Shown here one piece after another: positions 23,904 to 57,600 of a stretch of DNA of 64,000 nt. Numbering within the stretch: position 1 is the first letter of the stretch; the number at the start of each line of letters is the position of its first letter. Origin of the DNA: Acidobacteriota bacterium (lineage in GTDB: Bacteria; Acidobacteriota; Vicinamibacteria; Vicinamibacterales; Vicinamibacteraceae); contig JADLFL010000001.1 in NCBI GenBank assembly GCA_020845575.1, forward strand, positions 1-64,000. Direction: 5' to 3'. The notes beneath the pieces were generated by a model. That model was not told the DNA's origin. It searched no databases and saw only the letters and a list, made by a program, of their open reading frames with translations. The translations under genes were made by a program, and so were the position numbers.

Positions 23904-24047
23904 AACGGCAACCGGCAACCGGCAACCGGCGACCGGCGACCGGCAACGGGCAACCGGCAACCGGCAACCGGCAACCGGCAACCGGCAACCGGCAGACCGG
24001 CAACCGGCAACCGGCAACCGGCAAACCGGCAACCGGCAAACCGGTAG
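23904..24047. repeat. CCGGCAA heptamer tandem array (about 20 copies)
   Basis: About 140 bp of a 7-bp unit (CCGGCAA) with occasional variants (CCGGCGA, GGGCAAC) and a few 8-bp units. It fills the gap between the divergent DUF2585 and nitrilase genes, ending close to both start regions. It is the longest member of a repeat family seen at several other gene boundaries in this window. Confidence 0.95.
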
Positions 24048-26555: not shown

Positions 26556-26882
26556 ATGAAACGAATGGCCTTCGGAGCGGTGCTTGCCGCCTTCATCACG
26601 CTGCCGGCGTGGGTGAGCGCTCAGGACATCGAGAAGGGCAAGACGGTGTACGCGGCCAACAAGTGCCAGACCTGCCATCAGATCGACGGCAAGGGCAACA
26701 AGCGCTTTCCACTCGATGGCGTGGGCGCGAAGCTCTCCGCAGACGACATCAGCAAGTGGATCACCGCGCCGGCCGAGATGGAAGCCAAACTGGCCGAAAA
26801 GCCGAAGGTTCGGATGAAGCCATACAAGCTCGCCGATGCCGACCTCAAGGCGCTCGTCAGCTACATGCAGAGCTTGAAGTAG
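26556..26882 (+). CDS. Small periplasmic c-type cytochrome
   Basis: A 108-residue monohaem cytochrome c with signal peptide (cleavage near WVSAQD). The haem motif is CQTCH at residues 37-41 and a likely axial Met is in KVRMKPYKL, followed by the C-terminal helix DLKALVSYMQSL. The ATG at 26556 is preceded by AGGAGAG. It starts a four-gene operon with the NapC/NirT-like, decahaem and outer-membrane barrel genes, so it probably shuttles electrons in the periplasm for that pathway. A 16-codon ORF, MKGVRGGYRLTTRGEN (26503-26553), ends 2 nt before it. Confidence 0.93.
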   Translation: MKRMAFGAVLAAFITLPAWVSAQDIEKGKTVYAANKCQTCHQIDGKGNKRFPLDGVGAKLSADDISKWITAPAEMEAKLAEKPKVRMKPYKLADADLKALVSYMQSLK

Positions 26883-26888
26883 GCCATC

Positions 26889-28289
26889 GTGATCGATAGC
26901 CGGCCCCTCCTGCCACGCGCGCTCACCGCGCATCCCGTGGCCGCCCTCGGCACCGCGCTCACCACGGTGAGCGCGGGCCTGTTCCTGCTTTCCCTGCTCG
27001 CCGAGGCCCTGGGCTGGCTGCAGAACCCGTACATCGGGTTGCTGACCTTCATCGCGCTGCCCGCGTTTTTCATCATGGGCCTGCTGCTGATCCCCATCGG
27101 GGCGTGGCGGGCGCGCCGGCGTGCGAGTCGCGGGTTGCCGGAGTTGCAGTGGCCGACACTCGATCTTCGCGACGCACGCGTACGCGGCTGGATGCTCCTG
27201 CTGGCCGTCGCCACAGTGCTGAACACACTCATCGTCAGCGCGGCGGGCATGCAGGCCGTGCACTACATGGACTCGCCGTCCTTCTGTGGCCAGGTGTGCC
27301 ACACGCAGATGGATCCGCACTTCGTGCAGTGGCAACTGGGCCCGGCGCACACGAAGGTCGCCTGCGCGAGCTGCCATATCGGTCCCGGTCCCGAGGGGTT
27401 CGTGCTCGCGAAAGCGCGCGGAACGTCGCAGCTGATCCAGGTGATCACCGGGACGTATCCCACGCCCGTGCCGACGCCCGTCGCCCATCGCCCCGACGCG
27501 AACGTGACATGCGGCTCCTGCCACGACGCGAAGCGGTGGATCGGCGAACGGACGCGTGACTACACCGAGATCGGCGATGACGAGGCCAACACGCCGTCGA
27601 CGACGCTGATGACGCTGCTGGTGGGCGGGACGAGACCCGATGGGAGCGCGTCCGGCATCCACTGGCACGCCACGCCTGGCCTCGAAATCGAGTACATCGC
27701 CACCGATGCGAGTCGCGGAAAAATTCCGTGGGTCCGCGTGAAATTCCCCACGGGTGACATCAAGGAATTCAGTGTCGAGGGCTTCGATCCGGCGTCGGGT
27801 GGCGAGCGCCGGCGCATGGATTGTGCCGATTGCCATAACAAGGTGGCGCATCCGTTCGCGCCAAGTGCCGAGCGCGCCGTCGACCGTGCGTTTGTCGACG
27901 GCCGCCTCGATGCGCGCCTGCCGTACCTGCGCCGCGAGGCCGTGCGACTGCTCACTGCCGAGTACGCCTCCGAGGACGAGGCGCGCGCGGCGATCACGTC
28001 GGGCCTTGCCGAGTTCTACGCCGGTGAGGGGGACGGTGCGAGTGCCGGCCCCGTGGACCAGAAGGGCGTGGCGGTTGCCGGGCGCACACTGGCCGACATC
28101 CACGCGGCCAACGTGCATCCCGCGATGCGCGTGACGTTCGGGACGTACACCAGCTTCCTCGGCCACACAGACGCCGACGGCTGTTTCAGATGCCACGATG
28201 ACGAGCACACGGCCAAGGACGGCTCGGTCATCACCCAGGAATGCGAGTCCTGCCACAGGGAAGTGGAGCAGCCTCCTGCGACCCCCTGA
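26889..28289 (+). CDS. NapC/NirT-like multihaem membrane cytochrome
   Basis: A 466-residue protein with about three hydrophobic segments in the first 125 residues, followed by a periplasmic multihaem domain. Five CxxCH sites are visible (CASCH, CGSCH, CADCH, CFRCH, CESCH) plus one CX3CH site, FCGQVCHTQM, at the position of the first NapC-type haem. The NapC/NrfH-type segment HTKVACASCHIGPGPEGF follows it. Such proteins oxidise quinol in the inner membrane and pass electrons to periplasmic cytochromes. The start is GTG at 26889, 6 nt after the small cytochrome. Context with decahaem MtrA-like and MtrB-like genes suggests it is the quinol-linked entry point, as CymA is in Shewanella (inference). 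Confidence 0.9.
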   Translation: MIDSRPLLPRALTAHPVAALGTALTTVSAGLFLLSLLAEALGWLQNPYIGLLTFIALPAFFIMGLLLIPIGAWRARRRASRGLPELQWPTLDLRDARVRGWMLLLAVATVLNTLIVSAAGMQAVHYMDSPSFCGQVCHTQMDPHFVQWQLGPAHTKVACASCHIGPGPEGFVLAKARGTSQLIQVITGTYPTPVPTPVAHRPDANVTCGSCHDAKRWIGERTRDYTEIGDDEANTPSTTLMTLLVGGTRPDGSASGIHWHATPGLEIEYIATDASRGKIPWVRVKFPTGDIKEFSVEGFDPASGGERRRMDCADCHNKVAHPFAPSAERAVDRAFVDGRLDARLPYLRREAVRLLTAEYASEDEARAAITSGLAEFYAGEGDGASAGPVDQKGVAVAGRTLADIHAANVHPAMRVTFGTYTSFLGHTDADGCFRCHDDEHTAKDGSVITQECESCHREVEQPPATP

Positions 28290-28349
28290 TCGCACCAGCA
28301 ACGGCGTTCGTTCGTGGCAAGCCGCGAACGCAGGTGAGAGGTGGACGAG

Positions 28350-29423
28350 ATGAAGCGAGCAGTAACAGCGTGGACGGGCATCCTGGCCGCCTTCGCCATG
28401 TGGATGGTCGTGACCGTCGTGTCGATCGACGCGCGCGGCGGTGGCCGACAGGACCGTGCCGAACAGGAAGGCCTCGTCAAGCCGCAGCCGCGTGCCGCGA
28501 CACAGCCGGCGCCCATGCCGCCGGCCACGCCCGCGCACGCGTCATTGACGTCGGCGGGCACCGGCACCTTCGTCACGACTGACGCGTCGGGACAGCCCGC
28601 GGCAGGCTTCGCGGGCGATGCCGTGTGCCTCGAGTGTCACGAGGACAAGGGCGCGATCAGCGCCACGCCGCACGGTCGTGCGAAGAACCCGCGCTCGCCC
28701 ATGGCGCAGGCCAGCGGCAGCTGCGAGAGCTGCCACGGCCCTGGCCAGGCGCACGCCGACGATCAGGACACGGGTCCCATCCTGCGTTTCGGCGACGCGA
28801 ACGCCGACGCGCGCACGGCCAACGAGACGTGTCTCTCGTGCCACACACGCGGGGCGCACGCCCTCTGGGAGGGCAGCGCGCACGACAGCCGCAACCTCGC
28901 GTGCGCGTCGTGCCACAGCGTCCACGCGCCGAAGTCGTTCGAGCACCAGCTCAAGACCGAGACGCAGAGCGAACTGTGCCAGACCTGCCACCAGCAGCAG
29001 GCCGCCAAGATGCGGCGCGCCTCGCACATGCCGATCACCGAGGGCAAGATGGAGTGCTCGACGTGCCACGAACCGCACGGCGCCACCAACGTCAAGCTGC
29101 TCAAGGTCGGCAACTGGCTGAACGAGAGTTGCATCAGCTGCCACACCGAGAAGCGGGGACCGTTCCTGCACGAGCACGCCGCCGTGCGCGACAACTGCAC
29201 GAGCTGTCACGATCCGCACGGCTCGCCGCACGAGCGCATGCTGGTCGCCAAGCTGCCGATGCTGTGCCAGCGCTGCCACAACCACGCGCGGCATCCGGCG
29301 ACGATCTACGACCAGACCCAGCTCACGGGCCGGAGCAACAGGATGCTGTCGCGCGGGTGCATCAACTGCCACTCCGCCATCCACGGCAGCAACCATCCGG
29401 CGGGCGTCACGCTGCTTCGCTAG
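28350..29423 (+). CDS. Decahaem c-type cytochrome, MtrA/DmsE family
   Basis: A 357-residue periplasmic cytochrome with a signal anchor and exactly ten CxxCH motifs: CLECH, CESCH, CLSCH, CASCH, CQTCH, CSTCH, CISCH, CTSCH, CQRCH, CINCH. The paired spacing and the ends (CSTCHEPHG, CTSCHDPHG, CINCHSAIHGSNHP) are typical of MtrA, PioA and DmsE. Members of this family insert into an outer-membrane barrel and carry electrons across it. ATG 28350 is chosen over the in-frame GTG at 28341 because of the preceding GAGAGG. The next gene, 11 nt later, encodes the matching barrel. A proline- and alanine-rich stretch of about 40 residues lies between signal and haem domain. Confidence 0.95.
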   Translation: MKRAVTAWTGILAAFAMWMVVTVVSIDARGGGRQDRAEQEGLVKPQPRAATQPAPMPPATPAHASLTSAGTGTFVTTDASGQPAAGFAGDAVCLECHEDKGAISATPHGRAKNPRSPMAQASGSCESCHGPGQAHADDQDTGPILRFGDANADARTANETCLSCHTRGAHALWEGSAHDSRNLACASCHSVHAPKSFEHQLKTETQSELCQTCHQQQAAKMRRASHMPITEGKMECSTCHEPHGATNVKLLKVGNWLNESCISCHTEKRGPFLHEHAAVRDNCTSCHDPHGSPHERMLVAKLPMLCQRCHNHARHPATIYDQTQLTGRSNRMLSRGCINCHSAIHGSNHPAGVTLLR

Positions 29424-29434
29424 GGAGAACGATC

Positions 29435-31594
29435 ATGACCACACGTACGCTTGCCGTCGGTCTGCTCGGTGTCCTGCTCGTGGTGCCGGCCGCCGCACAG
29501 ACCCCCATCGGCCAGCCTCCCGCCAGTGACGCGGAGTCGGCCGCGGTCCTCGATCCGAATCTGCGGTCGGTGGATTTCGGCGTCAGGCTCAGCGACGTCG
29601 ACGGCGACAAGGCCCGCTTCAATCGCTACGCCGACAGGCGCACCGGCGCCATGCTCCAGGGCGTGCGCTGGACTTCGGAGACAGACGCGCGGATCTGGCG
29701 CCTGGAGGCCGACAACGTCGGCTATCGCGATCAGCGCTTCGCCGCGAGCCTGGAGCAGTTCGGCCGCTTCAAGGGCTGGTTCCAGTACAACCAGATTCCG
29801 TACGAGCAGTCGTACACCACGCGCACGCCGTTCACGGTGGCCGGCCCCACGCGCGTCACGGTGGACGATGGGCTGCAGACGTCGATTCAGGCAGGTCAGG
29901 CGACGCTCAATCCGGCGGTCGACGCGTACGCCAGCCCGTTCCGCCTGCGTACCACGCGCGACGTCAGCACGGTTGGCGCCCAGTACCAGGTGAACCGCGA
30001 CACCGACATCGCGTTCGCGGTGACGTCGACGGGCAGGAAGGGCCATCAGCCTGTTGGCGCGAGTTTCGGCATGGCGTCGACCTTCGAGGTGCCCGCGCCG
30101 ATCGACCAGCGCAACAACGAAGTGGCGGCCAACATCGAGTGGTCCACGAAGAAGGCGATGTTCCGCGCCGGGTACGACGGCTCATGGTTCACCAGCCGGA
30201 CCGAGTCGCTCCAGTTCGACAATCCGCTCCGCATCACCGACACGGCCACGGCGACGTCGGTCGGACGGCTTGCGCGCTGGCCGTCGAGCACGATGCACAC
30301 GGTGTCGGCCACGGGCTCCATCGCCCTGCCAGGCAAGAGCCGCGCGCTCGCGTACGTCGGCCGCTCGGCGATGACGAGCGACGTGGATCTGCTGCCGTGG
30401 ACGATCAATCCGGCGATCACGCAGCCCGCGCTCGAGCGCACGTCGGTGAGCGGCGAAGCCGCCGTGACCACCGTGCTGCTGCGGTACACCGCGCGTCCCA
30501 CGCGCTGGTCCTGGTTCAACGCGAGCTTCCGCTCGTACGACATGGACAACAGGACCGCACCGTTCCACTACGACCAGAAGGTGAGCTACGACACCACGCT
30601 CGTGAACTCGCCGGGCGCGGCATCGCACCCGTACTCGTTCAACCGGCAGACGGCGGAGGTCGACGCGTCGTTCACGCCATGGCGTAACGGCGCGTTCCGC
30701 GTGGGCTACGTGCGCGAGGACATCGATCGCACGCACCGCATCTACGACACGACGGTCGAGGACACGGTCCGTCTCGGATACGACTGGACGTCGAACAGGT
30801 ATGTGACGCTGCGCGCCAGCTACCAGCACCAGCAGCGCCGCGGCAGGGGACTCGACACGGATCTGCTCGCCTCCTACAGCGAGCAGTCCGACATGCGTCA
30901 CGCCGATATCAGCAATCGCGACCGCGACGTCACGCAGTTCGTGATCACCTTCATCCCGCGCGGCGATCTGTCGCTCAACGTGACGGGCTCGATCGGCACC
31001 GACGATCGTCCCGACGGCGTGTTCGGCCTGCGGAGCCAGGACTTCTCGACGGTCGGGTTCGGCGTGGACTACTCGCCGAGCGCCGCGTTCGGCATCGGCG
31101 CGAACTACCTGTACGAGACGTTCTCGTCGCTCGAGACGAGCCGCACCGCCAACCCGCTGCCGGATCCGGGCTTCAACGATCCCCGCCGCAACTGGAGCGA
31201 CGACATCGACGAGAAGGTCCACACCTTCAACGCGTACATCGAAGCACCCAAGGTGGCGGGCAAGGTCGACCTCGGCCTGACCTACGACTACACGAAGGCC
31301 GACACGTCGTGGACCTACTCGCTGCCTGCCGACAGCACGCTGCCCGCCGTCTCGCAGCTCCGGCCGGTGTTCAACGACTGGACGCAGGTGCGCTTCACAT
31401 CGTCGTACTGGCTGAAGCGCAACCTGTCGCTCGGCCTCGTGTACCTGTACGACAGGTTCGACGTGAACGACTGGGCCCTCGGCACGCAGGCCCTCGACCG
31501 TCTCGCACAGAGCAACACGTTCCTGCTGATGGGATACGGCTGGGAGAGATACACCGCGAACACGGTGTGGCTGAAGGCCACGTATCTCTGGTAG
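29435..31594 (+). CDS. MtrB/PioB family outer-membrane beta-barrel
   Basis: A 719-residue protein with signal peptide (cleavage near PAAAQT) and many short amphipathic beta-strands. It ends in an aromatic residue (LKATYLW), as expected of outer-membrane barrels. The N-terminal region LRSVDFGVRLSDVDGDKARFNRYADRR and the following strands resemble MtrB/PioB decahaem-associated proteins. AGGGAG lies 7 nt before ATG 29435. It directly follows the decahaem cytochrome, so the two should form an outer-membrane electron conduit. No extracellular MtrC/OmcA-type multihaem gene follows in the window, making this a PioAB/MtoAB-like arrangement. The N-terminal CxxC pair of Shewanella MtrB is absent. Confidence 0.9.
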   Translation: MTTRTLAVGLLGVLLVVPAAAQTPIGQPPASDAESAAVLDPNLRSVDFGVRLSDVDGDKARFNRYADRRTGAMLQGVRWTSETDARIWRLEADNVGYRDQRFAASLEQFGRFKGWFQYNQIPYEQSYTTRTPFTVAGPTRVTVDDGLQTSIQAGQATLNPAVDAYASPFRLRTTRDVSTVGAQYQVNRDTDIAFAVTSTGRKGHQPVGASFGMASTFEVPAPIDQRNNEVAANIEWSTKKAMFRAGYDGSWFTSRTESLQFDNPLRITDTATATSVGRLARWPSSTMHTVSATGSIALPGKSRALAYVGRSAMTSDVDLLPWTINPAITQPALERTSVSGEAAVTTVLLRYTARPTRWSWFNASFRSYDMDNRTAPFHYDQKVSYDTTLVNSPGAASHPYSFNRQTAEVDASFTPWRNGAFRVGYVREDIDRTHRIYDTTVEDTVRLGYDWTSNRYVTLRASYQHQQRRGRGLDTDLLASYSEQSDMRHADISNRDRDVTQFVITFIPRGDLSLNVTGSIGTDDRPDGVFGLRSQDFSTVGFGVDYSPSAAFGIGANYLYETFSSLETSRTANPLPDPGFNDPRRNWSDDIDEKVHTFNAYIEAPKVAGKVDLGLTYDYTKADTSWTYSLPADSTLPAVSQLRPVFNDWTQVRFTSSYWLKRNLSLGLVYLYDRFDVNDWALGTQALDRLAQSNTFLLMGYGWERYTANTVWLKATYLW

Positions 31595-31597
31595 ATC

Positions 31598-31772
31598 GGC
31601 AACCGGCAACCGGCAACCGGCAACCGGCAACCGGCAACCGGTCAGGGGCCGCGGCGTCTTCGATGTCCGCGGCCCTTCGTCATTCATCATTCGTCATTCG
31701 GCATTGTCTGCATTCGGCCTTCACGAGATCTCGCACCGGTTGCCCGTTGCCGGGTTGCCGGTTGCCGGGTTG
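31598..31772. repeat. Composite heptamer repeats: inverted CCGGCAA arrays flanking CATTCGT units
   Basis: Right after the barrel gene, CCGGCAA units run at 31598-31641. About 40 bp later come CATTCAT/CATTCGT/CATTCGG units (about 31680-31715). Then GGTTGCC units, the reverse complement of the first array, lie at 31735-31772. The two outer arrays could pair into a long hairpin at the end of the electron-transfer operon. Confidence 0.9.
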
Positions 31773-32720: not shown

Positions 32721-32757
32721 GGAGACCGGCAACCGGCAAAGGGCAACCGGCAACCGT
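32721..32757. repeat. CCGGCAA-type heptamer array (about five units)
   Basis: Starts 4 nt after the GDPD stop: ACCGGCAACCGGCAAAGGGC and similar units. Same family as 23904-24047. The rest of this gap (to 32852) holds a GC-rich palindromic stretch around 32757-32785 and no gene. Confidence 0.85.
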
Positions 32758-36130: not shown

Positions 36131-37564
36131 TCAGCGTGTGCCGAGCCGCGCGATGTCCACCTGCTGCCCAGCGGCCATGACCATCCTGACGTGGCGGATG
36201 GCGCGGATGTCGTCGGCAGGATTTCCGTCGACGACGAGGAGGTCCGCTGCCGCACCCTGACGGATCGCACCGAGATCCGTGCCGCCGACGCCGAGGAATG
36301 CCGCCGCATTGGTGGTGCCCGCCGTCAGCGCCTGCGCGGGTGTGAGTCCGCTCTCCACCAGCAGTTCGAGTTCGCGCCATGGCGCTTCGCCGCGGCCGGC
36401 GTGTGGCACCTCCGTGTGTCCGCCCATCACGATGCGCGCACCGTTGTCGTGCAGCCGCCGCACGAGCGCCTGCATGCGCGCGAACCCTTCCGCGCGTCGC
36501 GCTGCCGAAAGAGTAGAGCCCGCCGGCACGGCGTCTGTCGGTCGTCGCTCGAAGACTGCGAGCGTCGCGTCGACGAACGGGCGCGTGCGTGCCACGACTG
36601 CATAGAGCCGTTTCGCATCCGGTCCGTCGAGATCGATCTCGGCGAAGAGCGCGTAGCGACCGTCGCGGCGCGCACCGTTGTCGGCGAGGACGGCCTGGCG
36701 GTAGCGTTCGGCCTGCATCGGCGAGGCGATCGCCGTGCCGAATGACGTGATGTGCTCGATGCCCGTCATCCCGGCGTCGAGCAGGTCGCGCGCGTCGAGG
36801 ATCTCCAGATGCGCGGTGCTCGGCACACCGCGCGTCCGGCACGTGTCGATGACGGCGAGCGCACTGGCGAGCGACAGGCGGAAGTAGATCTTGATCGCCG
36901 TCGCACCGCCGTCGATCGCGCGCTCCACCTGTCGGCGCGCTTCCTGCGGGTCGCGTGCGACGACCGCGTCGGCGGGATACGCGGGTCGCTCGCCGTCGAT
37001 GTGCGGGCCGGTGAGGAAGAGCCGCGGACCGGGCAGTCGCTCGTCGGCGATGAGGCGCCGGAGAGGCTCGTGTACTTCGAGCCACTCACCCGGATCGCGG
37101 AACGCCGTGATCCCGTGCGCGAGCTGCCGCAACGCCATCGCCGGGTCTTCCTCGATATGGAAGTGGCAGTCGATGAGGCCGGGCAGGATGGTGCCCCCGT
37201 CGATCCGCGTGACGGACGCGCCGTCCGGGATCGGCACATGACCGACCGCGCCAGCGGCAACGATGCGTCCGTCGAGCACGACGACCCGCGCGCCGTTGTC
37301 GGTGATGAGACGCGTCCCGTCGAACAACCGCCGCGCCTCGATCGCCACGCGCCCCGGCGCCGCCGCTTGCCCCGCCCACGCACCACGCGTGCCGACAACA
37401 GCCCCCGCCGCCGCGAGCCCCCACCTCAGAATCGCGCGTCGTGACGGCCCGGTGCCGGGCCGTGCATCGCACTGCCGTCCGGTGCCCGGTGCCCGCTGCC
37501 CGGTACCCGGCTGTGCCTTCCCCGGTTGCCGGTTGCCCGTTGCCGGTTGCCGGTCCCCCCTCAC
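36131..37564 (-). CDS. Amidohydrolase family protein with Tat signal and repeat-coded N-terminal extension
   Basis: A 477-residue metal-dependent amidohydrolase of the imidazolonepropionase/urease-like class. Visible motifs are [16 protein letters not shown] (HxH metal site), [13 protein letters not shown] (Lys region), [18 protein letters not shown] and [17 protein letters not shown] twin-arginine signal SRRAILRWG begins at residue 41. The only usable start in frame is GTG 37564, which overlaps the MFS stop as GTGA, the coupling used repeatedly in this window. The first 40 residues (for example [11 protein letters not shown]) are then encoded by heptamer repeat DNA. Substrate unknown; coupling to an MFS transporter suggests uptake and hydrolysis of the same small molecule. 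Confidence 0.83.
37466..37556. repeat. Heptamer array within the start of the amidohydrolase gene
   Basis: Units GTGCCCG, CTGCCCG and GTACCCG, followed by GGTTGCC units, occupy the junction between the MFS and amidohydrolase genes. If the amidohydrolase begins at GTG 37564 the array is translated as its N-terminal tail. Confidence 0.85.
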
Positions 37565-45632: not shown

Positions 45633-48600
45633 ATGAGACACAAGGGACTGACCGCCGCCATCCTGCTGTTCCTCGCGAGCCTCGCGGGGGCCGGCCATCA
45701 GGTGCGCCTTCAGGCGGGCGCACTGACGCTTGTCGATCCTGGCCGCGTGTCGGCCGGCGTGCTGGTCAATCTGACAGGTACGGGGTTCGCGACAACGGCA
45801 ACGGCCAACGACGTCACGTTCACGCCGGCGGGCGGCAATGCGGTGACCGTGCGCGCGTCAGCCATCGCGACGGTCAACGCGGCGCAGGGCATTCGCCGCC
45901 TGTCCGTCGCCGTTCCGGCGCTCCCGCTGGGGCAGGCGTCCATCCGCGTACGCAACACGACGACCGGTGAAGAGAGCACCGCGGCGTCGGTCTCGATCGT
46001 CAGCATCACGCCGTCGGTCACCACGCTCCAGCAGGGTGAGTCGCGCGAGATCGTTGTCACGGGCTCGCCCGCCGCCGGGTTCACGTCGGGCGCTCGCGTG
46101 GCGCTTGGTGCGGGCATCACCGTCGGCGCGGTGACCGTCGCGTCGCCGACGAGCCTTGTCGTGCAGGTGTCCGTCGCGCAGAACGCGGCGCTCGGCGTGC
46201 GCAGTCTCGACGTCACGTCGCCAGGCGTCCTCGCGCGGGACAGGAGCATCAGCGTTGTCGCGCCATCGGCCACCAACGCGGCGCCGACGGTGAACGCCGG
46301 ATCCGATCAGGCCGTCACGTTGCCCGCGGCCGCCACGTTGAACGGCACCGCGAACGACGATGGGCTGCCGGCCGGCAGCACGCTGGCGTTGCAGTGGTCG
46401 CAGGTGAGTGGGCCTGGCACCACGACGTTCGGCGCGCCGACGAGCGCGAGCACGTCCGCGACATTCTCGGCAGCCGGCACGTACGTATTGCGTCTCACGG
46501 CGAGCGACGGGGAGCTCAGCGCGAACAGCACGGTGACCGTCACCGTCACCGCGGCTCCGCCGGAGAACGCGGCGCCCACGGTCGATGCCGGCGCCGACCA
46601 GGCGGTGACGCTGCCCGCTGCTGCCACGTTGAACGGCTCCGCAAACGACGATGGGCTGCCGGCCGGGAGCACGTTGGCGTTGCAGTGGTCGCAGGTGAGC
46701 GGGCCTGGCACCACGACGTTCGGCGCGCCGACGAGCGCGAGCACGTCCGCGACATTCTCGACAGTCGGGACTTACGTATTACGTCTCACCGCGAGCGACG
46801 GCCTGCTGAGCGCGAGCGACACGGTGACGGTCACCGTTGCGGAACAGGGCGGCGGGGGCGTCGATCCGACGCCCGCCAACCGCGCACCGGCTGTCGACGC
46901 CGGCGTCGATCGCGTCGTGACGCTGCCCGCCGGCGTCACGCTCGACGCGCAGGTGACCGACGACGGCTACCCGGCACCGTCCGCGTTGCAGATCACCTGG
47001 GAGCAACTGTCAGGCCCGGCGCTGGCGACGTTCGCCACGCCGACCCAGGCATCGACGGGGGTGTTCTTCCCGAACGCCGGCGTCTACGTGCTGCGCGTCA
47101 ATGCGAGCGATGGTGACCTCTCGTCGTCAGACGAAGTGCGCGTCACCGTCAATCCGGCCCCGCAACCCGCGAACGCCGCGCCGGTCGTCACGGCCGGCGC
47201 GGCAGCCACCATCGTCCTGCCCTCGCCGATGGCGCTGAGCGCCACGGTGACCGACGACGGCAGGCCGGCGCCCGCGCGCATCGTCGTCACCTGGAGTCAG
47301 GTGAGCGGTCCCGGCGTTGCGGTGATCGCCGATCGCGGCAGCGCGATGACGAGCGCGACGACCACCGTGGCCGGCACGTACGTCTTCCGCGTGACGGCCG
47401 ACGACGGGGCGCTCGCCGGATCGGCGGAGATGACGGTGGTCGTGCAGCCGGAGCCGCCGCCCGTCAACGCGCCGCCGACGATCAGCGTGGCGGGCGATGC
47501 CCGCGTGACGCTGCCCAGCGCCGCGATGCTGCGCGCGACGGTCGCCGACGATGGCCGTCCGACGGCGGCGCCGCCGGCCGTGTCGTGGTCGAAGGTGACC
47601 GGACCCGGCGTGGCGGTGTTCGCCTCGCCGGCCGCCGCCTCATCGGCCGTGACGTTCTCGCAGGCAGGTACTTACGTATTGCGCGCGACGGCCAGCGACG
47701 GCCTGCTGTCGGCCAGCGCCGACGTCACCGTCATCGTCGACGCCGCGCCACCCACCAACACGATGCCGCGCGTCGACGCGGGCCCCGACGTGCGTGCGGT
47801 GATGGGCACGCCGCTGCCGCTCGTCGGTCAGGTGCAGGACGATGGCCTGCCGAGCGGGTCGTCGCTCTCGACGCAGTGGTCGATGGCGATCGGCCCGTCG
47901 ACGGTGTCGTTCGCCGCCGCGGGCAGTCTCGCCACGACGGCCACCTTCGGCATGCCTGGCCGCTACGTGATCGAACTCGTCGCGAGCGATGGTGAGCTCG
48001 TCGGCAGCGACACGCTCGTCGTGAACGTCGTGCCCGCGGAGGGCGACGACCTGCTGGCGCCCGTCATCACGCTCGACGGCCCGACGCGCGCGCTGCCAGG
48101 CACAGAGGTGCGCGTCACGGCGCGCGTGTCCGATGACGTGGGCGTCACGCGCGTGACGTTCGTCGTCGATGGCGAGCCGCGCGATCCCCAGACGACAGCG
48201 CCGTTCGCCACGCTCGTGCGCCTGCCGGACGTGGCGGCGCCGGGGCAGATCGTGCGCGTACGCGCGACGGCCGAGGACGCGGTCGGACACGTCAGCGCCG
48301 ACGAACTGGCGATCGCGATCGCCTCGACGCCCGACGTCACGCCTCCGGAGCTCGATCTGCGCACGCCCGAGGCCACGCGGCCCGGCGACACGGTGACGGC
48401 GCTCGCCCTCGCCTCCGACGAATCAGGGATCGCGCAGGTCGAGTTCTTCGTCGACGAAGTGTCGGTGGGTGTCGACACCGATGCCCCGTACGAGTGGGCG
48501 TACGCGGTGCCGGTGTCGAGACCGGCGGGCCCGCTGGCCGTCCGCGCGGACGCCGTCGACAACGCGGGCAATCGCGCGTCGGTCACGCGCGTCGTGCAGG

Positions 48601-51600
48601 TGACGGCCGACGCCGATACCACCGCGCCGACGGTGTCGGTGTTCGCGCCCGCGACAGCGTTCGGTGGCGCGACGGTGCAGGTCGAAGCCGTGGTCACCGA
48701 TCCGGGCGGCGTCGCTGGCGTCACGTTCTCGGTCGCGGGGCTGACGATCGACGATCTGCGCAAGGCGCCGTGGAGCGTGCCGGTGTCCGTTCCCGATCTG
48801 CCTGTCGGCACCACGCTGCAGGTCACCGCCGTCGCGCGTGACTTCTCCGGCAATACCGGCAGTGCCTCGGCGACGATCACGATTGTCGATCGGCCGATCA
48901 CGGGCGTCGGGCTCGTCACCGGACGCGTGTTCGACGATCGCTCGGGCCTGCCGCTGGCGGGCGCGCGCGTGGCGATCACTTCTGGTGTACCCGGTGGCCC
49001 CGTCTCGTTCAGGCGCGACATCATCAGCGACGCCGCGGGCCGCTATCAGGTGGACACGCCGGCGGGCGCGGTGCGCGTGGTCGTCCAGTTGGACGGCTAC
49101 GTGCAGACGACGCGTATGGTCGATGTCGCGGCTGGTGCCATCGCGTCTGTCTTCGACGCGCGCCTCACGCCGCGCGGCACGGCCGTCCCCGTCACGTCGG
49201 CGGCGGGTGGCGCGCTGACGTCGGGCGCACATCGGCTCGACGTGGCCGCCGGGGCCGTCGTCGGATCGGCGGCGCTGACGCTCGCGCACGTGTCGGGTCA
49301 GGGACTCACGGCCCATCTGCCCGCCGGATGGACGCCTGTGGCCGCGGCGCACGTCGGGCCCGACGCGCAGGCGTTCGTGCTGCCCGTGTCGCTGTCGATG
49401 CCGCTCGACGTGGCGGTGCCCGCCGGACGCACGCCCGCGCTCGTGCAGTGGGACGCTGTTGCGGAGCAGTGGCGTGTCGTGGCCGATGCCGTCGCCGTGG
49501 CATCCGGTCGTATCGAGCACGGCGTCACGCGCGGTGGCCAGTACGTGGTCGTGCTCGCCGACGCGCTGCCGCTGGTGCCACCCGCCGCGGTGACAGGGGC
49601 GTGGCTCGCCGGCGTACCGCGGCCGGAACCGAGCGACAGCGTCACGAGCGCCGTGACGCCGGATCCGCGCGTGCTCTTCGCATCGCCAGACGCGCGATCG
49701 ATGGTGACGGGCACCGTCACGTCGGTCGCGCCGGTGACCAGCGGCCTGTTCCTGCACGCGGCGCTCGACGAGACGTATGCGTTCGTCGACGGCGAGCGGT
49801 GGCGGCCCGTGGGTCGATTGCAGGACGTGGTGCTCTATCAGCGCCCGGCGGCGCCTCTCACGTCGGAAGCGACGGTGCCAGTCGGACCGTCGCGCGCGTT
49901 CGATCCGCTCTCGCTCCAGCGCGGCGTCATCAGCGTCGAACTGCGCATCCCGATCGCGCTCACCGGCGGCAGCATCGTCGGCAGCGGTGGCGGGACGGTG
50001 CAGGGAGACGATGAAGTCGAACTGGCGATTCCGGCCGGCGCCGTCGATGCCGCCACGCAGATGGCCGTGCGCCGCGTGCCCGTCGAGTCGCTCGGCCTGA
50101 CGCTGCCCATCGGCGTGACGGCGCTCGACGCGATCGACGTGCTCGTGACGAGCCTCACGCAGCCGGCCAGCCTGAGCCTGCCCGTGCCCGCGGGGCTGAC
50201 CGACGCCACGCGCGTCGTCGTCGCGCGCCTCACGGAGATCAACGGACGATCGGTCTACCAACTCGCGGGTCTTGCCGCCGTTGTCGGCGGCCGCGTGCAG
50301 GTGGTGCTCGAGGCCGGCGGACAGCCGACCGGACTGCCCGGGATCCGCGCCGCCGGCACGTACGTCCTGCTCCAGGCACCGAGTCCGCTCGGCTTTGCCG
50401 CCGGTCGCGTTGTCGATCCGGTTGGTGCGGCGGTGGTCGGCGCCGTCGTGACGCCGAGCACGCTGCCCGTGGTGTCGGTCTCGACGGCGGCAGGCGCGTA
50501 CTTCGTCGCGGCGCCGAATGGCGCGGTCGTCGTGGCCGCGGCTGACGAACAGCGCGGCGATCGCGGTGAGCGGCCGGCGTTCCTGCCATCGCAGACGGTG
50601 ACGCCGCTCACGCTCACGATCGTGCCCGTTCCGCCGCAGATCACGGCGGTGCGTCCGGCCGGCGACGCGCGTGGCGTGCTCGTCGACGACCCGGTGACCG
50701 TCACGTTCTCCGAGCCGATCGCCGCGAGCAGCGTGACGGGCGCCGTCCGTCTCGTGGGTCCTGGCGACGTCGACGTGCCGTTCACCACGGCGCTCACGCG
50801 GGGCGGCACGGTGCTCGAAGTGCGTTCGGTTGCCGCGTTCGAGACGGCGTCGCGCTACGTCCTCACCGTCTCGACGGCCATCACCGACCTGGCGGGACAC
50901 GCGCTCCAGTCGGCGCTGACGAGTGCGTTCAGGACCGTGGATCTGTCGGGTCCGGAGGTGCCGCCGCCGGGCACCGTCACCGCGTCGGTCCCCGACGCCG
51001 GTGGTCGCGTCACGGTGACCGGTGCGCCGGGCACGGCGGTCCCCGGCACGCGCGTGTTCGTGGAGAACATGACGCGCGGCACGAGCGCGCTCGCGCTCAC
51101 GACAGCCGACGGCAGCTTCGCGACGGGTCTCGTCGCGTCGGTCACCGATGTCCTGCGCGTCCGCATCGTGGACGAGGACGAGCACGCGACGATCGTGGCG
51201 ATCGAGACGATGCGGCAGCAGAACCCCGACGGGTCGGTGTCGCAGGCGGTGTCGGCGGCGGGTGGCGTTGTCGAAGGACCGGAAGGCACGCGCGCGTCGA
51301 TCAAGCCGGGCACGTTCCCCGCGGGGACCGTCGTGACGATGAAGGCCGTGCCCGTGGCCGACTTCCCGCGGCAGTTGTCCGAGGCCGAGCGCGTGAACTT
51401 CAGCCTGGAGAAGGCGATCAGCCTCGACTTCGACGGCGCGACGCCGGCGCACTACGTGGACGTCTCGTGGCCCGCGGGGCCGGAGGACAAGCCGACCGAT
51501 CAGTGGGTGCTCACCGAGTCGATCTTCGTCAACGGCGAATGGGCGATGAACGTGACCGACACGGTGAAGTACCGCGACGGTCGCCTGACCACCGCGTCGC

Positions 51601-54600
51601 CGCCGTGCCCGGGCGTGACGGCCGCCGCCGTGTACGGCCTGCTCAAGTCGACGGTGCCGTACGGCCTGAACTACGCGCAGATGTATGCCGACGGCCGCTA
51701 CAAGCTGAAGATGTCGATGGAGGTCTTCCAGAGCGCGCCCATCGCGATTCCCTACTCGGCATTCAGCGTCGAGTTGCCGAAGGTCGTCTGCTTCCCGGCG
51801 TTCGTCGGGCGCATGTCGATCACGCCGAACACGACGCGGGTCACTGTGCCGGGTGATGCCCTGCGGCCGGCGGACACGGCTCTGGAGGTGGAACTGAAGG
51901 GCCGATCCGCGCCGCTGCGGTTCGAGCGTCGCGTCGCCCCGTTTCACCTGCGCGTTCACGGCTTCAGGAACGATGCGTTCACCGTGTATGCCATCGGGCC
52001 CGAGGATCCGACCGGGACCAAGGTGCACGCGACGCGCTATGACAACGAGCGTTCGTTCATCGATGTGAACGAGGCCGACAAGCAGACGATGGACTTTCGC
52101 TTCGAGTCGTCGGGTGTCGCCTCGCCCGTCACGCTCGTTGTCGATCCCGACATCATCAGCAAGCCCGTGACGGCGTTCAAGGTCGTGGCCGTCAGAGCGA
52201 ACGCATCCCTGGTCGCGCTGGTGGACGACCAGAAGATGACGGTCAACGTGCCGGGCGCGGTCGCTGACGTCGTCGCCGTCAAGGCGGTGACGCCCCATGA
52301 CTACCTCGGCCTGGTGGACTTCGACCTGCGCCGCGATGTGCCGTTCATGACATTCCAGGCGGTTGGTCCCGGAAACCTGGTGCTGCGTGCATCGCCCGGC
52401 ACCATCGATCCTCCGCGCGAGGAGATGGGCGGCGTCTCTGGACCCGCGAGGACCCGCCTCTACCTGGCGTCCGACGAGGATGGGTTCGGAGGCATTGACA
52501 TTCCCTCTCAGGCGATCGTGCAGGGTGGCCTGGAGTTCCCGTTCGACGGACCAGAAGGCGCCACGTACAGAGTCGTCACCGAGTACGACACGCGACCCCC
52601 CTATGCGGTCGAGCTCCCGACCGTGAAGTACGTACTGCGGAACGTCAACACGGGGCAGATCCTGAAGACGATCTTCGGCCAGGCACCGCCGCGTGACGAA
52701 CCCGTCGAACTACCGCCCCTGACCGACGACGACGTCAGTCCCACGCTGCTGTCCGCGCCGTCGAGGATGGACACGTTCGACCCAGCAGGTCTGCTGACAT
52801 TCACGTTCTCGGAGTCGATGAACGTCGAGAGCGTCCGCAAGGCGATCGCGGTGATGTCGGGCGACGAGAAGGTCGCCGGGCAGGTCCGGATCTCGGACCA
52901 GAACCGGGTGGCCACGTTCGTGCCCGATGTGCCGTTGGACCTCGACAGGCGGTACACGGTCACGGTGAGCGGGGCACTGGACCTGGCCGGTAACACGCTC
53001 GCCGAGCCTGCGACGTTTCTCGTCAACACGTTCCAGCCGCGGTCGCTGTCGTTGCCCGACGCGGAGGAGACACCGACGGGCCTCTTCAAGGACACGGCCT
53101 GGTTGTTTCGCGACGACGGCACGCAGCGGAAACGACATCTCTTCGCCGTCCTTGGCGGCTCGCGGGACAACGTGCGGTGGCTGGACGGGACCGACCCGGC
53201 ACGCCCGGTGTCGCGGGGGCTGAACACGGGGACGGAGAGTCTGCAGCGGATCGCGGCCATCGACACGGATCGGTTGCCGGCACTCGGGGCTGGCAGGCAG
53301 ATGCTGCTGGCCACGACGTACTTCAACGTCAATCGCAGCGGGGTCCAGTTCTTCCGCGCTTCCGAGCCGGGTTCTCTCGACTACATGGGGGGCATGACCC
53401 TTTCGAACAGCCTGGTCGACGTGGCCGGATACGCACGCGGTGTGGTGCTGCACGAAGTGAGCTATGGCGTGGTGGCGATGGTCGCCGTGGAGAACCACGG
53501 TGTGATGGCTCTCGGCGTGACCGATGCCATCGCCGGTAGCGGGCGTGTGCGGACCACCTATCCGATGCTGCGCGTCAAGGACATCGCTCGATACAGGGAC
53601 GGCGTAGTCGCTGTCGGTTGGGATTCCGACAACAAGGGCAAGCTCGTGGTGCTCGGAGAGTCGCTCAACGAACTCGCCGTTGGTCCGACCCCCGCGTTCG
53701 AGTCGCTGAGGCCAACTGTCGTCACGGTGGGAGAGGGCGTGCACATCGACCTCAATCGTGACGGCGAGCAGCAGGCAGACGAACGGATGGACATCGCCGT
53801 CGTCGGCACGCAGCAGTCGATCGTGGTCGTGCGGATCTCCAAGGCCAACGGCGAGCCCGACGCGTACCGATTCATGGACGTATCGGTCGACGGCGTCGTC
53901 AAGCAGATCGAGATCGACCAGGAGCGTTCGCGCGCGATTGCGCTCGTCGACTCGGGATCCGGTACGTTCCTCAAGATCGTCGACCTCGCTCGCGGGGAGA
54001 TCGACCCTCCCGACGGCCAAGCGGATCCGCGGATCATCTACAGCCGCTCGTATCCACAGGGTGCCAACGGGCTGCGCCTGGACCGTGACACGGGACTTCT
54101 GTACATCTCGACGCCCTCCACGCTCGATACATGGCTCGTCGCCGATCGCTGCTGCGATCTCGGTGTCGAGTTGACCGCCGACCTCGACAAGAAGGCGCGC
54201 GGCGTCGTCTCCGGCAGTCTCGGAGACGTCCTCGCGAAGGAACTGTCGGCCATCAAGCGCGGCGTGGTGCTCGGACTCGCGCGTGCGGAACAGACGTGCC
54301 CTGGGTTCGACGTGAGCAAGTTGCGCCTGATCGAGTCAGGCAGTTCGGCATGTCTCTGGGCCGCCGATCCCGTACGTGCCTGCGGATCCAACTACCAGCC
54401 GCTCGTGAGCGATCACGACATCTCCACGTTCATGCCGGACGAGTGGTACCAGACGCAGGTCCCCGATCCGAACTGGGACGGCGAAGGCGAGCGGGCCTCG
54501 GTGTTGCTGGCCGGGTGCGTGGTGGCGGGCCTGAGCGACCCGTTCATCGATCCGATCACCGAGCAGCCTCGGGCGGTCGGCGATACCGGCGTCGTCTTCA

Positions 54601-57600
54601 AGGACATCTCGTTCATCCCCAACTTCTCAAGAGACCTCGAGAACATGGAGTACCGCCTCGAGCGCACCATCCAGGGACTACCCGGCGACGCCGACAACGA
54701 CCTGGCGATGGGCCGTCAGTTGCTCGCGATGAAGCACCTGACGGAGGCATACGGCGTGGACCTACGGGGGACCGAGGGCTACAAGCCCGCGTACGCCGCG
54801 GTGATGGTGGACGAGGCCGAGTTCGAAGCCAGGTTCCGCCGGTTCCGCGAGGTGACACGCATCTCCGAAGCCGAAGGGTACGAGTGGGGCGTGCTGATGG
54901 AGTTCATGCTCGCCAAGGCCAAGGTGTACCTGCGCTTCCGCGGCGCGAGCGACGAGCGTTCCACCTTCCACGATCTCTGGGTGAAGCAGTACCACACGGC
55001 GGCGAAGGCGGGAATCCGCGCTGCGGCCGCGCGCATCGTGGCGCATGCGCCGTCTCGCGACATCTTCCTCAGGCTGCGCCGCGAGGAAGGCAACGAGGCC
55101 GACGGCCTGAAAGTGTTCCGCAAGGACGCCTGTCTCATCTACCAGAGGTCCGTGCGTCCGTCCGAGTGGCCATCGAAACCGTGTGGCTCGATGGAGGAGT
55201 ACGTCGCCGCGACGGCGGTGCGTGCCATGGCGACGGGGCTCTTCACGGAAGCGGAGGTACTGCAGATCAATGAGTTCTATCGGGTGAAGGCCGACGAGCA
55301 GCCGATCGTCACCGAGCGCGAAGCCGACAAGTTCATCGCTGACGTGGACCTCTTCGTGGGCCTCACGAAGGTCCGGACGTGGCCCGTGTACCAGACGGCC
55401 GTTGCTGGCGATCCGCGTGCCTCGGAACGAGAGGCCAATCGTGTGTATGCCGAAGGGAACGGTCCAGGTGGTCGGGCCGCGTCGGGCGGACGCATCGTGG
55501 AGGTGCTCCGCAACACCAAGGTCACCGTAGCTCCGAAGGTCTACAACCGCGGCTTCATGAGCGCACCGGACGTGTACCTGCGCGCGTACGTCGCACCTCC
55601 GGGTGGGGACGGGGCACTCGGGTGCGTGGGCGAGGACAGTGAGGGAGACGATCCCGACCCCATGCTTCGCGACAGGTGCCGAATGGCGCTGAATCTCCCT
55701 GGCGGTTCGCTCATGTTCCCCGCGTATCGCCACGCGACGACGGGCAAGTACATGCCGGTGCCGACGAGCCGATCCATCGACGCGTTTCCGATCAAGGTAG
55801 ACCAGCGTGCGTGGGGACAGAGAGGGTACATCGCCTTCACGCTCGACCTCCCTGAGCGGTCCGCCAATGAGGCCGATCGCACCAACAACGTGGCGGGTGC
55901 GTTCTACTACATCCTCAATGCCTTCGGCGTTCCGCCGGACCTGCCCGCAAACGTGCCCACGCACGTGAACCCGTCGCTGCTCGCGCCGGATCCGTACTGC
56001 CTCGCGGCGCCGCAGTTGACTGTCACGCAGTCTGTCGTGCTCGACGGACAGGAGCACACCAGCCCCGTGTCGGCATATCTCGGGGCGAGCTACACGCTGC
56101 GCGTCGCCGTGACGAACACGGGCGGCACGCCAGTCGACAACGTCCTCGCCGGTACGTCGCTCAAGGGCAACTACGTCAGCGTCGGAGGGATCGCTCCGGG
56201 CGCCACCAAGGTGCGAGACGTGCCGATGCTGATGCCGTCCGAGCCGGCGAATCTGGAGTCGGTCGCGACGGCGATGGCGCCGGAGATGGGCATCTCGACG
56301 GCGTCGATACTCAGGATTGGCGCGCGGTGCGAGCCGATGATCGCCGAGCTGGAGCCCAACCCGAATCCGCTCGTCTCCAGGGTGAAGATGGGCGGCCGTG
56401 CGGTGCGTCACTACATGGCGCTCCATCCGACCACGCTGGCGCCACTCCCGAACGTAGCTGTGACGTTCGTGGGCGACGGCGGCACGAGCCTCGACGGGTA
56501 CACGTTCGTGTCCGACGAGAAGGGCCTGTTCACGACCGTCGTGGCGTCGAGCAAGAACCCGATCGCGGGGATTGCCATCCCCGCGCGGAACGAGACGCGT
56601 CTGGAGACGTGGACACTCGCGTCCGTCAACGGACGGGCGCCGGTGTGCAACGCCGAGAAGACGTTCTCCGTGCAGTCGCTGGGGACGTTCCCCTACCAGC
56701 CCAGTATCGAGGCGGGGGCGGCCATCAGCGTCGGCCTCAAGGTCTTCGGCAAGGGGCTGTCGGCCGACTTCGGTGGCGCGTACCGTGTCGAACTGCCGTC
56801 GACACCGCTGAACCTGGATCCGGCCGGAGCCGGTCGGACGACGATCGAGCCGCCGGTCGAGAACATTCAGGGCGTCACCTGGGAGCGCAAGGCGGAGGTC
56901 GGCATCAGTGGCGATCTCGGCTGGGAAGGGGTTTCGGCCTCCAGCGAGTTCAATGGTGCCCAGTGGCAGGCCAAGGGGCTGTCGTTGAAGGCCAGCGGCA
57001 AGGCGTCGGCCACGCAGGCGTACCGCTACCACTTCGCCGCCAATCCTGCGAACTTCGGCACGATGGGCCTGGACTGGCCGTTCCTCGTGTTGTTGTTCCC
57101 CAACATGTCGGAGGCTGACGCATCCCAACTCAACTCCCTCTTCAATTTCGGCACCGACCAGTACATGAAGAAGGCGCTCGAGCAGGAGATGGGCCAGCTC
57201 TTCGATCCGGAGAAGGCCTACCGCGAGTACCGGAATGCACGCGTCGCAGGTCTCGCGCTGAGCGCGGAAGCGGTAGCCGAGGGCTTCAACGGAACGATCG
57301 ATTTCGTGGACAAGTCGAGCGGCCCCAAGGGCGAGGAGAACAAGACGTCTCCGTTCTTCAGCGAGCAGGCGGGCGGCACCGCCTCGGCCTCCGTGGCATA
57401 CGAGAAGTTCGAGCACCTGATCCCGGGGCGGGTTGTCGACGAGGACGTGCCGACTGACCTCGTCCACACCATCGACATCCAGGGCAAGTACGACTGGAAG
57501 TCCAGCTACACCACGAGCCTCGAGAAGGCCAAGGGCGAGATCGACGGGAGTGGCGCGCCGGATGTCGCCAAGGAAAAAGTCGTCGACTACCTGAAGTGGG

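What the first reader, a model, noticed from the sequence alone, without database searches (positions are those of the whole stretch)
26556..31594. Complete inner-to-outer membrane electron conduit (NapC-like, decahaem MtrA-like, MtrB/PioB-like)
Four contiguous same-strand genes encode a small cytochrome c, a quinol-oxidising NapC/NirT-type multihaem protein, a ten-haem MtrA/DmsE cytochrome and its barrel. Such sets support extracellular electron transfer or iron oxidation. In a probable Vicinamibacteria genome, better known as soil aerobes, this is notable. No MtrC-type surface cytochrome is adjacent.
Basis: partly seen in the sequence, partly recalled or inferred. Interest (0 to 1): 0.7.

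Follow-up and report, generated by a model that had tools for sequence, protein, structure and literature searches.

The report
ImcH-linked electron conduit in soil Luteitalea
A soil bacterium of the genus Luteitalea carries a four-gene set predicted to wire its inner membrane to the outside of the cell through a ten-haem protein threaded in an outer-membrane pore; the parts are known, but they are coupled to a Geobacter-type (ImcH) rather than a Shewanella-type (CymA/NapC) inner-membrane protein and lack the usual surface cytochrome, which can be tested in two cultured relatives.

Summary
At 26556-31594 (+) lie a monohaem class I cytochrome c, a three-helix hexahaem inner-membrane cytochrome, a decahaem MtrA homologue and an MtrB/PioB barrel, spaced like an operon. 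One point changes: gene 2 is not an ordinary NapC/NirT protein. It has ImcH architecture (three N-terminal helices, CX3CH first, five CX2CH at the positions seen in Geomonas/Geobacter ImcH, 35-36% identical, lacking only the last haem). A 2018 survey found no mtrAB beside imcH; here the pairing recurs across Vicinamibacterales in several gene orders, which argues for functional linkage. A 2026 metagenome paper mentions ImcH- or NapC-like proteins beside decahaem-porin pairs, so the pairing is not wholly new. The MtrB model matches solved MtrB at TM 0.80-0.88. MtrA falls in a supported, almost entirely barrel-linked Acidobacteriota clade. No OmcA/MtrC-family protein passes the cut-off in the 96%-complete genome. 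Two same-genus genomes match Luteitalea pratensis and strain TBR-22 in exact length and carry the set at the same place. Best reading: quinol to ImcH, periplasmic cytochrome, MtrAB, then an extracellular acceptor directly. Direction and substrate are inferred. A plausible, testable variant of a known system, not a new kind.

The parts
26556..26882 (+). Monohaem class I cytochrome c (108 aa) with signal peptide; CQTCH at 37-41, probable axial Met87 (RMKPY). Proposed periplasmic shuttle (MtoD-like position).
   Evidence: PF00034 1.8e-13; conserved beside imcH/mtrAB in Vicinamibacterales; axial Met by sequence reading only
26889..28289 (+). ImcH-type inner-membrane quinol:cytochrome oxidoreductase, 466 aa, GTG start, 3 TM helices (19-37, 49-67, 98-116), haem motifs CX3CH at 133 and CX2CH at 159, 208, 312, 432, 452
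   Evidence: single copy in the genome
28350..29423 (+). MtrA-type decahaem cytochrome c (357 aa from ATG 28350; GTG 28341 also possible), N-terminal export signal, Pro/Ala-rich linker, 10 CXXCH, 11 further invariant His (enough for ten bis-His haems)
   Evidence: TIGR03508 254 bits; 6r2q_A E=3e-58; A2 alignment
29435..31594 (+). MtrB/PioB-type outer-membrane beta-barrel (719 aa, signal peptide, no Cys)
   Evidence: PF11854 290 bits; AlphaFold2 pLDDT 82.6, pTM 0.77; Foldseek 6r2q_B E=6e-35, TM 0.80/0.88

Best explanation
It is an MtrC-less MtrAB outer-membrane electron conduit coupled in one operon to an ImcH-type quinol oxidase and a monohaem periplasmic cytochrome. Proposed path: (1) the ImcH-type protein in the inner membrane oxidises (mena)quinol and passes electrons through its six periplasmic haems [motifs and helices shown, activity inferred]; (2) the monohaem cytochrome carries them across the periplasm [inferred from linkage]; (3) the decahaem MtrA, inserted in the MtrB barrel, carries them through the outer membrane [homology and barrel model shown, conduction inferred]; (4) with no OmcA/MtrC-family surface cytochrome detected, electrons leave at the exposed MtrA tip to an extracellular acceptor such as chelated Fe(III), Mn(IV), humic quinones or a shuttle [inferred]. 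It would serve as an alternative electron sink when O2 is short, in an otherwise oxygen-respiring heterotroph.
For: Families and copy number. Structure: 56, 64. ImcH layout identical to Geomonas/Geobacter ImcH bar the seventh haem: 31, 70, with the ImcH definition from PMC6295460. Recurrent linkage of c1, imcH, mtrA and mtrB in several gene orders: 23, 54; ImcH tree 87. MtrA in a supported, mostly barrel-linked clade: 55, 65. No MtrC: 14, 16. MtrAB alone can move electrons across the outer membrane and reduce Fe(III) in Shewanella (PMC4245776). Haem-copper oxidases present, RuBisCO absent: 61, 62.
Against: No expression, redox or growth data. I found no report of a Luteitalea isolate reducing iron, and PMC5900883 saw mtrA/mtrB in L. 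pratensis but judged the operon incomplete. A His/Met monohaem cytochrome is usually high-potential (general knowledge), which fits inward flow at least as well. The ImcH-type model is low-confidence (pLDDT 57). The genome is 96% complete, so a surface cytochrome could be missing from the assembly.
Confidence: 0.62

Rival explanations
1. The same conduit runs inward: MtrA takes electrons from extracellular Fe(II), Mn(II), reduced humics or neighbours, passes them to the monohaem cytochrome and on to an oxidase (or to quinone through the ImcH-type protein), as in the Mto/Pio systems.
For: Gene content (decahaem, barrel, monohaem cytochrome, inner-membrane quinone protein, no MtrC) parallels mtoABD-cymA; PMC10654088 describes that operon and PMC4245776 notes that Fe(II)-oxidation mtr clusters lack mtrC; haem-copper oxidases present; class I monohaem cytochrome.
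Against: ImcH homologues are so far tied only to quinol oxidation (PMC6295460); no RuBisCO in this genome or two complete relatives, so autotrophic iron oxidation by that route is unlikely; other carbon-fixation routes were not tested.
Confidence: 0.22
2. DmsE/DmsF-like: the MtrAB pair feeds a surface terminal reductase (DMSO-type or other) encoded elsewhere rather than minerals.
For: Best NCBIfam name is 'DmsE family', although that model spans the decahaem family widely.
Against: Adjacent genes scanned are a nitrilase-type hydrolase, a DEAD helicase and a phosphodiesterase, not a reductase. Molybdopterin enzymes genome-wide were not searched.
Confidence: 0.08
3. A relict or rarely used cluster without respiratory importance.
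For: One genome of the genus (G003) shows no match, but it is a fragmented draft.
Against: All four genes intact, ten haem motifs and distal histidines invariant, same genomic site in three genomes and the site cut by a contig end in a fourth, linkage kept across the order.
Confidence: 0.08

Closest known systems
MtrCAB / CymA of Shewanella
   Same: Decahaem MtrA in MtrB barrel (6r2q_A E=3e-58; 6r2q_B TM 0.80/0.88), fed from quinol by an inner-membrane multihaem protein
   Different: No MtrC/OmcA; inner-membrane partner is ImcH-type, not tetrahaem CymA; MtrB has no Cys at all; extra monohaem cytochrome in the operon
MtoAB-MtoD-CymA (Sideroxydans) and PioABC (Rhodopseudomonas)
   Same: MtrAB pair without surface cytochrome; MtoD is likewise a monohaem periplasmic cytochrome (established knowledge)
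   Different: CymA or HiPIP PioC replaced by an ImcH-type protein; host has no RuBisCO; MtoA/PioA sequences not available here for a tree
ImcH of Geobacter
   Same: Three N-terminal helices, atypical CX3CH first, CX2CH at matching positions, 35-36% identity over about residues 17-461
   Different: Lacks the C-terminal seventh haem; encoded next to mtrAB, which the 2018 survey of ImcH (PMC6295460) did not find for any imcH
Group 2 porin-cytochrome complexes of karst MAGs (PMC13264449, 2026)
   Same: Small decahaem cytochrome beside a 25-36 strand porin, with an ImcH- or NapC/NirT-like inner-membrane cytochrome in six of eight; Acidobacteriota among the hosts of its porin-cytochrome complexes
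   Different: Its text does not separate ImcH from NapC/NirT per cluster, and the passages read do not treat Luteitalea or the spread of the pairing in the order

Membership tests
MtrA/DmsE decahaem family | Ten CXXCH and score over TIGR03508 cut-off | tested here: met
   10 motifs; 254.4 vs 192.2 bits
MtrA/DmsE decahaem family | Ten further conserved His for bis-His haems | tested here: met
   11 non-motif His invariant in 19 sequences; nine align with His of S. baltica MtrA and, read by eye, a tenth (226) lies one residue off a His
MtrA/DmsE decahaem family | Groups with barrel-linked MtrA rather than lone soluble cytochromes | tested here: met
   28-row clade, 99/96, with mtrB adjacent
MtrB/PioB barrel | Pfam PF11854 over cut-off and MtrB fold | tested here: met
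   290 bits; TM 0.80/0.88 to 6r2q_B
MtrB/PioB barrel | NCBIfam TIGR03509 over cut-off | tested here: not met
   235 vs 240.05 bits, near full-length match; a narrow miss of one curated model
ImcH | Three N-terminal transmembrane helices | tested here: met
   Hydropathy segments 19-37, 49-67, 98-116; same helices in a low-confidence model
ImcH | Atypical CX3CH next to the membrane domain plus 5-9 CX2CH | tested here: met
   CGQVCH at 133 then five CX2CH; definition from PMC6295460
ImcH | Quinol oxidation supporting extracellular electron transfer | not testable with these tools
   needs biochemistry
NapC/NirT/CymA | Pfam PF03264 over cut-off; short tetrahaem with one helix | tested here: not met
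   23.8 vs 24.1 bits; 466 aa, three helices, six haem motifs
MtrCAB system | MtrC/OmcA surface decahaem cytochrome | tested here: not met
   No OmcA/MtrC family match over cut-off in the genome; best is MtrA itself; haem-pair census shows only an ActA-like and an 8-haem TPR protein besides

The most novel reading that the evidence does not exclude
The ImcH-type protein works bidirectionally or as a quinone reductase here, so that aerobic soil Vicinamibacterales take up electrons from extracellular Fe(II), Mn(II) or reduced humics through MtrAB, a role not reported for ImcH in the survey read.
Probability: 0.15. Interest if true: 0.7.

Novelty: new variant of a known kind. Interest (0 to 1): 0.42.

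Why it matters
Vicinamibacteria are common soil bacteria and are generally regarded as aerobes. A conserved inner-to-outer-membrane electron path in this order, including genomes that match two cultured Luteitalea, would make extracellular respiration a plausible trait of ordinary soil Acidobacteriota and would show that the Geobacter quinol oxidase ImcH and the Shewanella-type MtrAB conduit are combined in nature. It also questions the reading that L. pratensis has no usable set because its mtr operon is incomplete.

Tried and rejected
Folding the ImcH-type protein gave pLDDT 57, pTM 0.34, so it was not used for a fold search. A plasmid search for named MtrA relatives gave one hit, Photobacterium, not used. 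Absence in two same-genus drafts looked like patchiness, but in G004 the contig ends inside the first gene of the set, and G003 also lacks the neighbouring helicase at the limit used, so absence is not shown. Acidobacteriaceae ImcH loci carry a decahaem protein and a large ORF, but that ORF has no Pfam match where checked, so they were not counted as MtrAB. The RuBisCO search was negative.

Full report
What is there. Four same-strand genes occupy 26556-31594 with gaps of 6, 51-60 and 11 bp. Gene 1 is a 108-aa class I cytochrome c with one haem motif. Gene 2 is a 466-aa multihaem protein. Gene 3 has exactly ten CXXCH and scores 254 bits against the DmsE/MtrA decahaem model (cut-off 192); it aligns to MtrA of the solved Mtr complex 6r2q at E=3e-58. 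Gene 4 is an MtrB/PioB barrel by Pfam (290 bits), just short of the NCBIfam MtrB cut-off (235 vs 240). Its AlphaFold2 model (pLDDT 82.6) matches 6r2q_B at E=6e-35, TM 0.80 by query and 0.88 by target, with the next match at TM about 0.42. ATG 28350 is the likelier MtrA start, since the Luteitalea relatives begin there in the alignment.

Gene 2 is ImcH-type. It has three N-terminal hydrophobic helices, a CX3CH first haem motif and five CX2CH. PMC6295460 describes ImcH by three N-terminal helices, an atypical CX3CH and five to nine CX2CH. Geomonas, Geobacter and Oryzomonas proteins fetched by name align at 35-36% identity over about residues 17-461 and, in Geomonas, carry motifs at 132, 157, 206, 312, 429, 449 and 487 against 133, 159, 208, 312, 432 and 452 here (L128): the same layout without the last haem. 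The Pfam NapC model scores under its cut-off.

Haem ligands. Across 19 MtrA sequences all ten motif histidines and eleven others are invariant; nine of the eleven align with histidines in S. baltica MtrA and a tenth, read by eye, lies one residue from one. Ten bis-His haems, as in MtrA, are therefore possible.

Who owns it. The genome is 4.57 Mb, 95.8% complete. Two same-genus genomes are 7,480,314 and 6,468,984 bp, the exact lengths published for Luteitalea pratensis HEG_-6_39 (PMC4882960) and Luteitalea sp. TBR-22 (PMC8852301). That identity is inferred from length. Both carry the set just downstream of the same DEAD helicase; the gene after it in the window also follows directly in the TBR-22 match, and lies several kb further on in the L. 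pratensis match. In a third relative (G004) the contig ends inside gene 1 at the same place.

Spread and linkage. An MtrB match at E<=1e-5 occurs in 66 of 149 related genomes and a decahaem match at E<=1e-40 in 122 of 297 Acidobacteriota. In the fetched stretches 16 ImcH genes lie within 6 kb of both mtrA and mtrB. Orders differ: c1-imcH-mtrA-mtrB (window, L053, L054, L057, L058, L060, L069, L083), mtrA-mtrB-c1-imcH (L064, L070, L072), versions with an added 9- or 11-haem cytochrome (L062, L086, L259), and imcH on the other strand (L255). Keeping the members while changing their order is good evidence that they act together. Fifteen of the 16 lie in one supported set of 23 ImcH proteins (SH-aLRT 100, quick tree); some of the other eight lie on short contigs. 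PMC6295460 reported no mtrAB beside imcH; PMC13264449 (2026) reports ImcH- or NapC/NirT-like cytochromes in six of eight decahaem-porin clusters.

Placement of MtrA. In trees of 81 and 78 sequences the window protein lies with Luteitalea and then in a 28-row Acidobacteriota clade (99/96), all labelled as having mtrB adjacent, apart from the Proteobacterial group that holds MtrCAB clusters and S. baltica MtrA (83/70).

No surface cytochrome found. A genome search with the OmcA/MtrC model found nothing over the cut-off, the best hit being MtrA itself; the TBR-22 match has a five-haem half-OmcA-like ORF elsewhere, also under the cut-off (189.9 vs 209.3 bits). A haem-pair census of this genome found, outside the cluster, only an ActA-like five-haem protein and an eight-haem TPR protein; proteins with unusually spaced haems could escape it. 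PMC4245776 states that MtrAB alone can reduce extracellular Fe(III) in Shewanella and conduct in liposomes, so lack of MtrC does not exclude function. This bears on PMC5900883, which saw mtrA/mtrB in L. pratensis and judged the Shewanella-like route absent because the operon was not complete.

Mechanism and direction. Shown: gene content, homology, barrel fold, linkage. Inferred: quinol oxidation by the ImcH-type protein, shuttling by the monohaem cytochrome, export through MtrAB. Outward flow is favoured because ImcH is known only from reducers and RuBisCO is absent; inward flow remains open because a class I monohaem cytochrome and missing MtrC resemble Mto. The genome has several haem-copper oxidase matches, so the conduit would be an addition to oxygen respiration.

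Verdict. Real, conserved, a variant of the MtrAB conduit with an unusual inner-membrane partner; moderately interesting because it is testable in cultured strains.

Noticed in passing
31597-31641, 23906-24044, 31736-31772, 32725-32756, 37479-37554: Short tandem arrays of 7-base units (mostly CGGCAAC or its complement) in several places, one directly after the mtrB stop.
   Followed up: no
45633-59105 (+): A 4490-aa ORF with PKD, bacterial Ig-like and carboxypeptidase-regulatory domains and a 291-bp internal repeat at 46275-46837; looks like a giant surface protein.
   Followed up: partly
L078:4925, L080:4633, L255:6111, L259:2859 (11 haems); L062:14354, L086:432 (9 haems): Periplasmic-looking 345-459 aa cytochromes with 9 or 11 haems near imcH, several of them near mtrAB too, in other Vicinamibacterales or Acidobacteria; absent beside the Luteitalea set; no lipobox seen. 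Possible extra carrier.
   Followed up: partly
L084, L087, L088, L089, L093, L095-L099, L101, L105, L119, L120: In Acidobacteriaceae-type loci an ImcH gene lies a few kb from a decahaem MtrA-like gene; the large ORF after it was checked in three of them (L084, L096, L097) and has no Pfam match: perhaps a divergent barrel.
   Followed up: partly
L055:9047-10969 (-) in G002: A five-haem protein matching the MtrC/MtrF domain II/IV model (103 bits) in the genome matching TBR-22, about 0.3 Mb from its mtrAB.
   Followed up: partly
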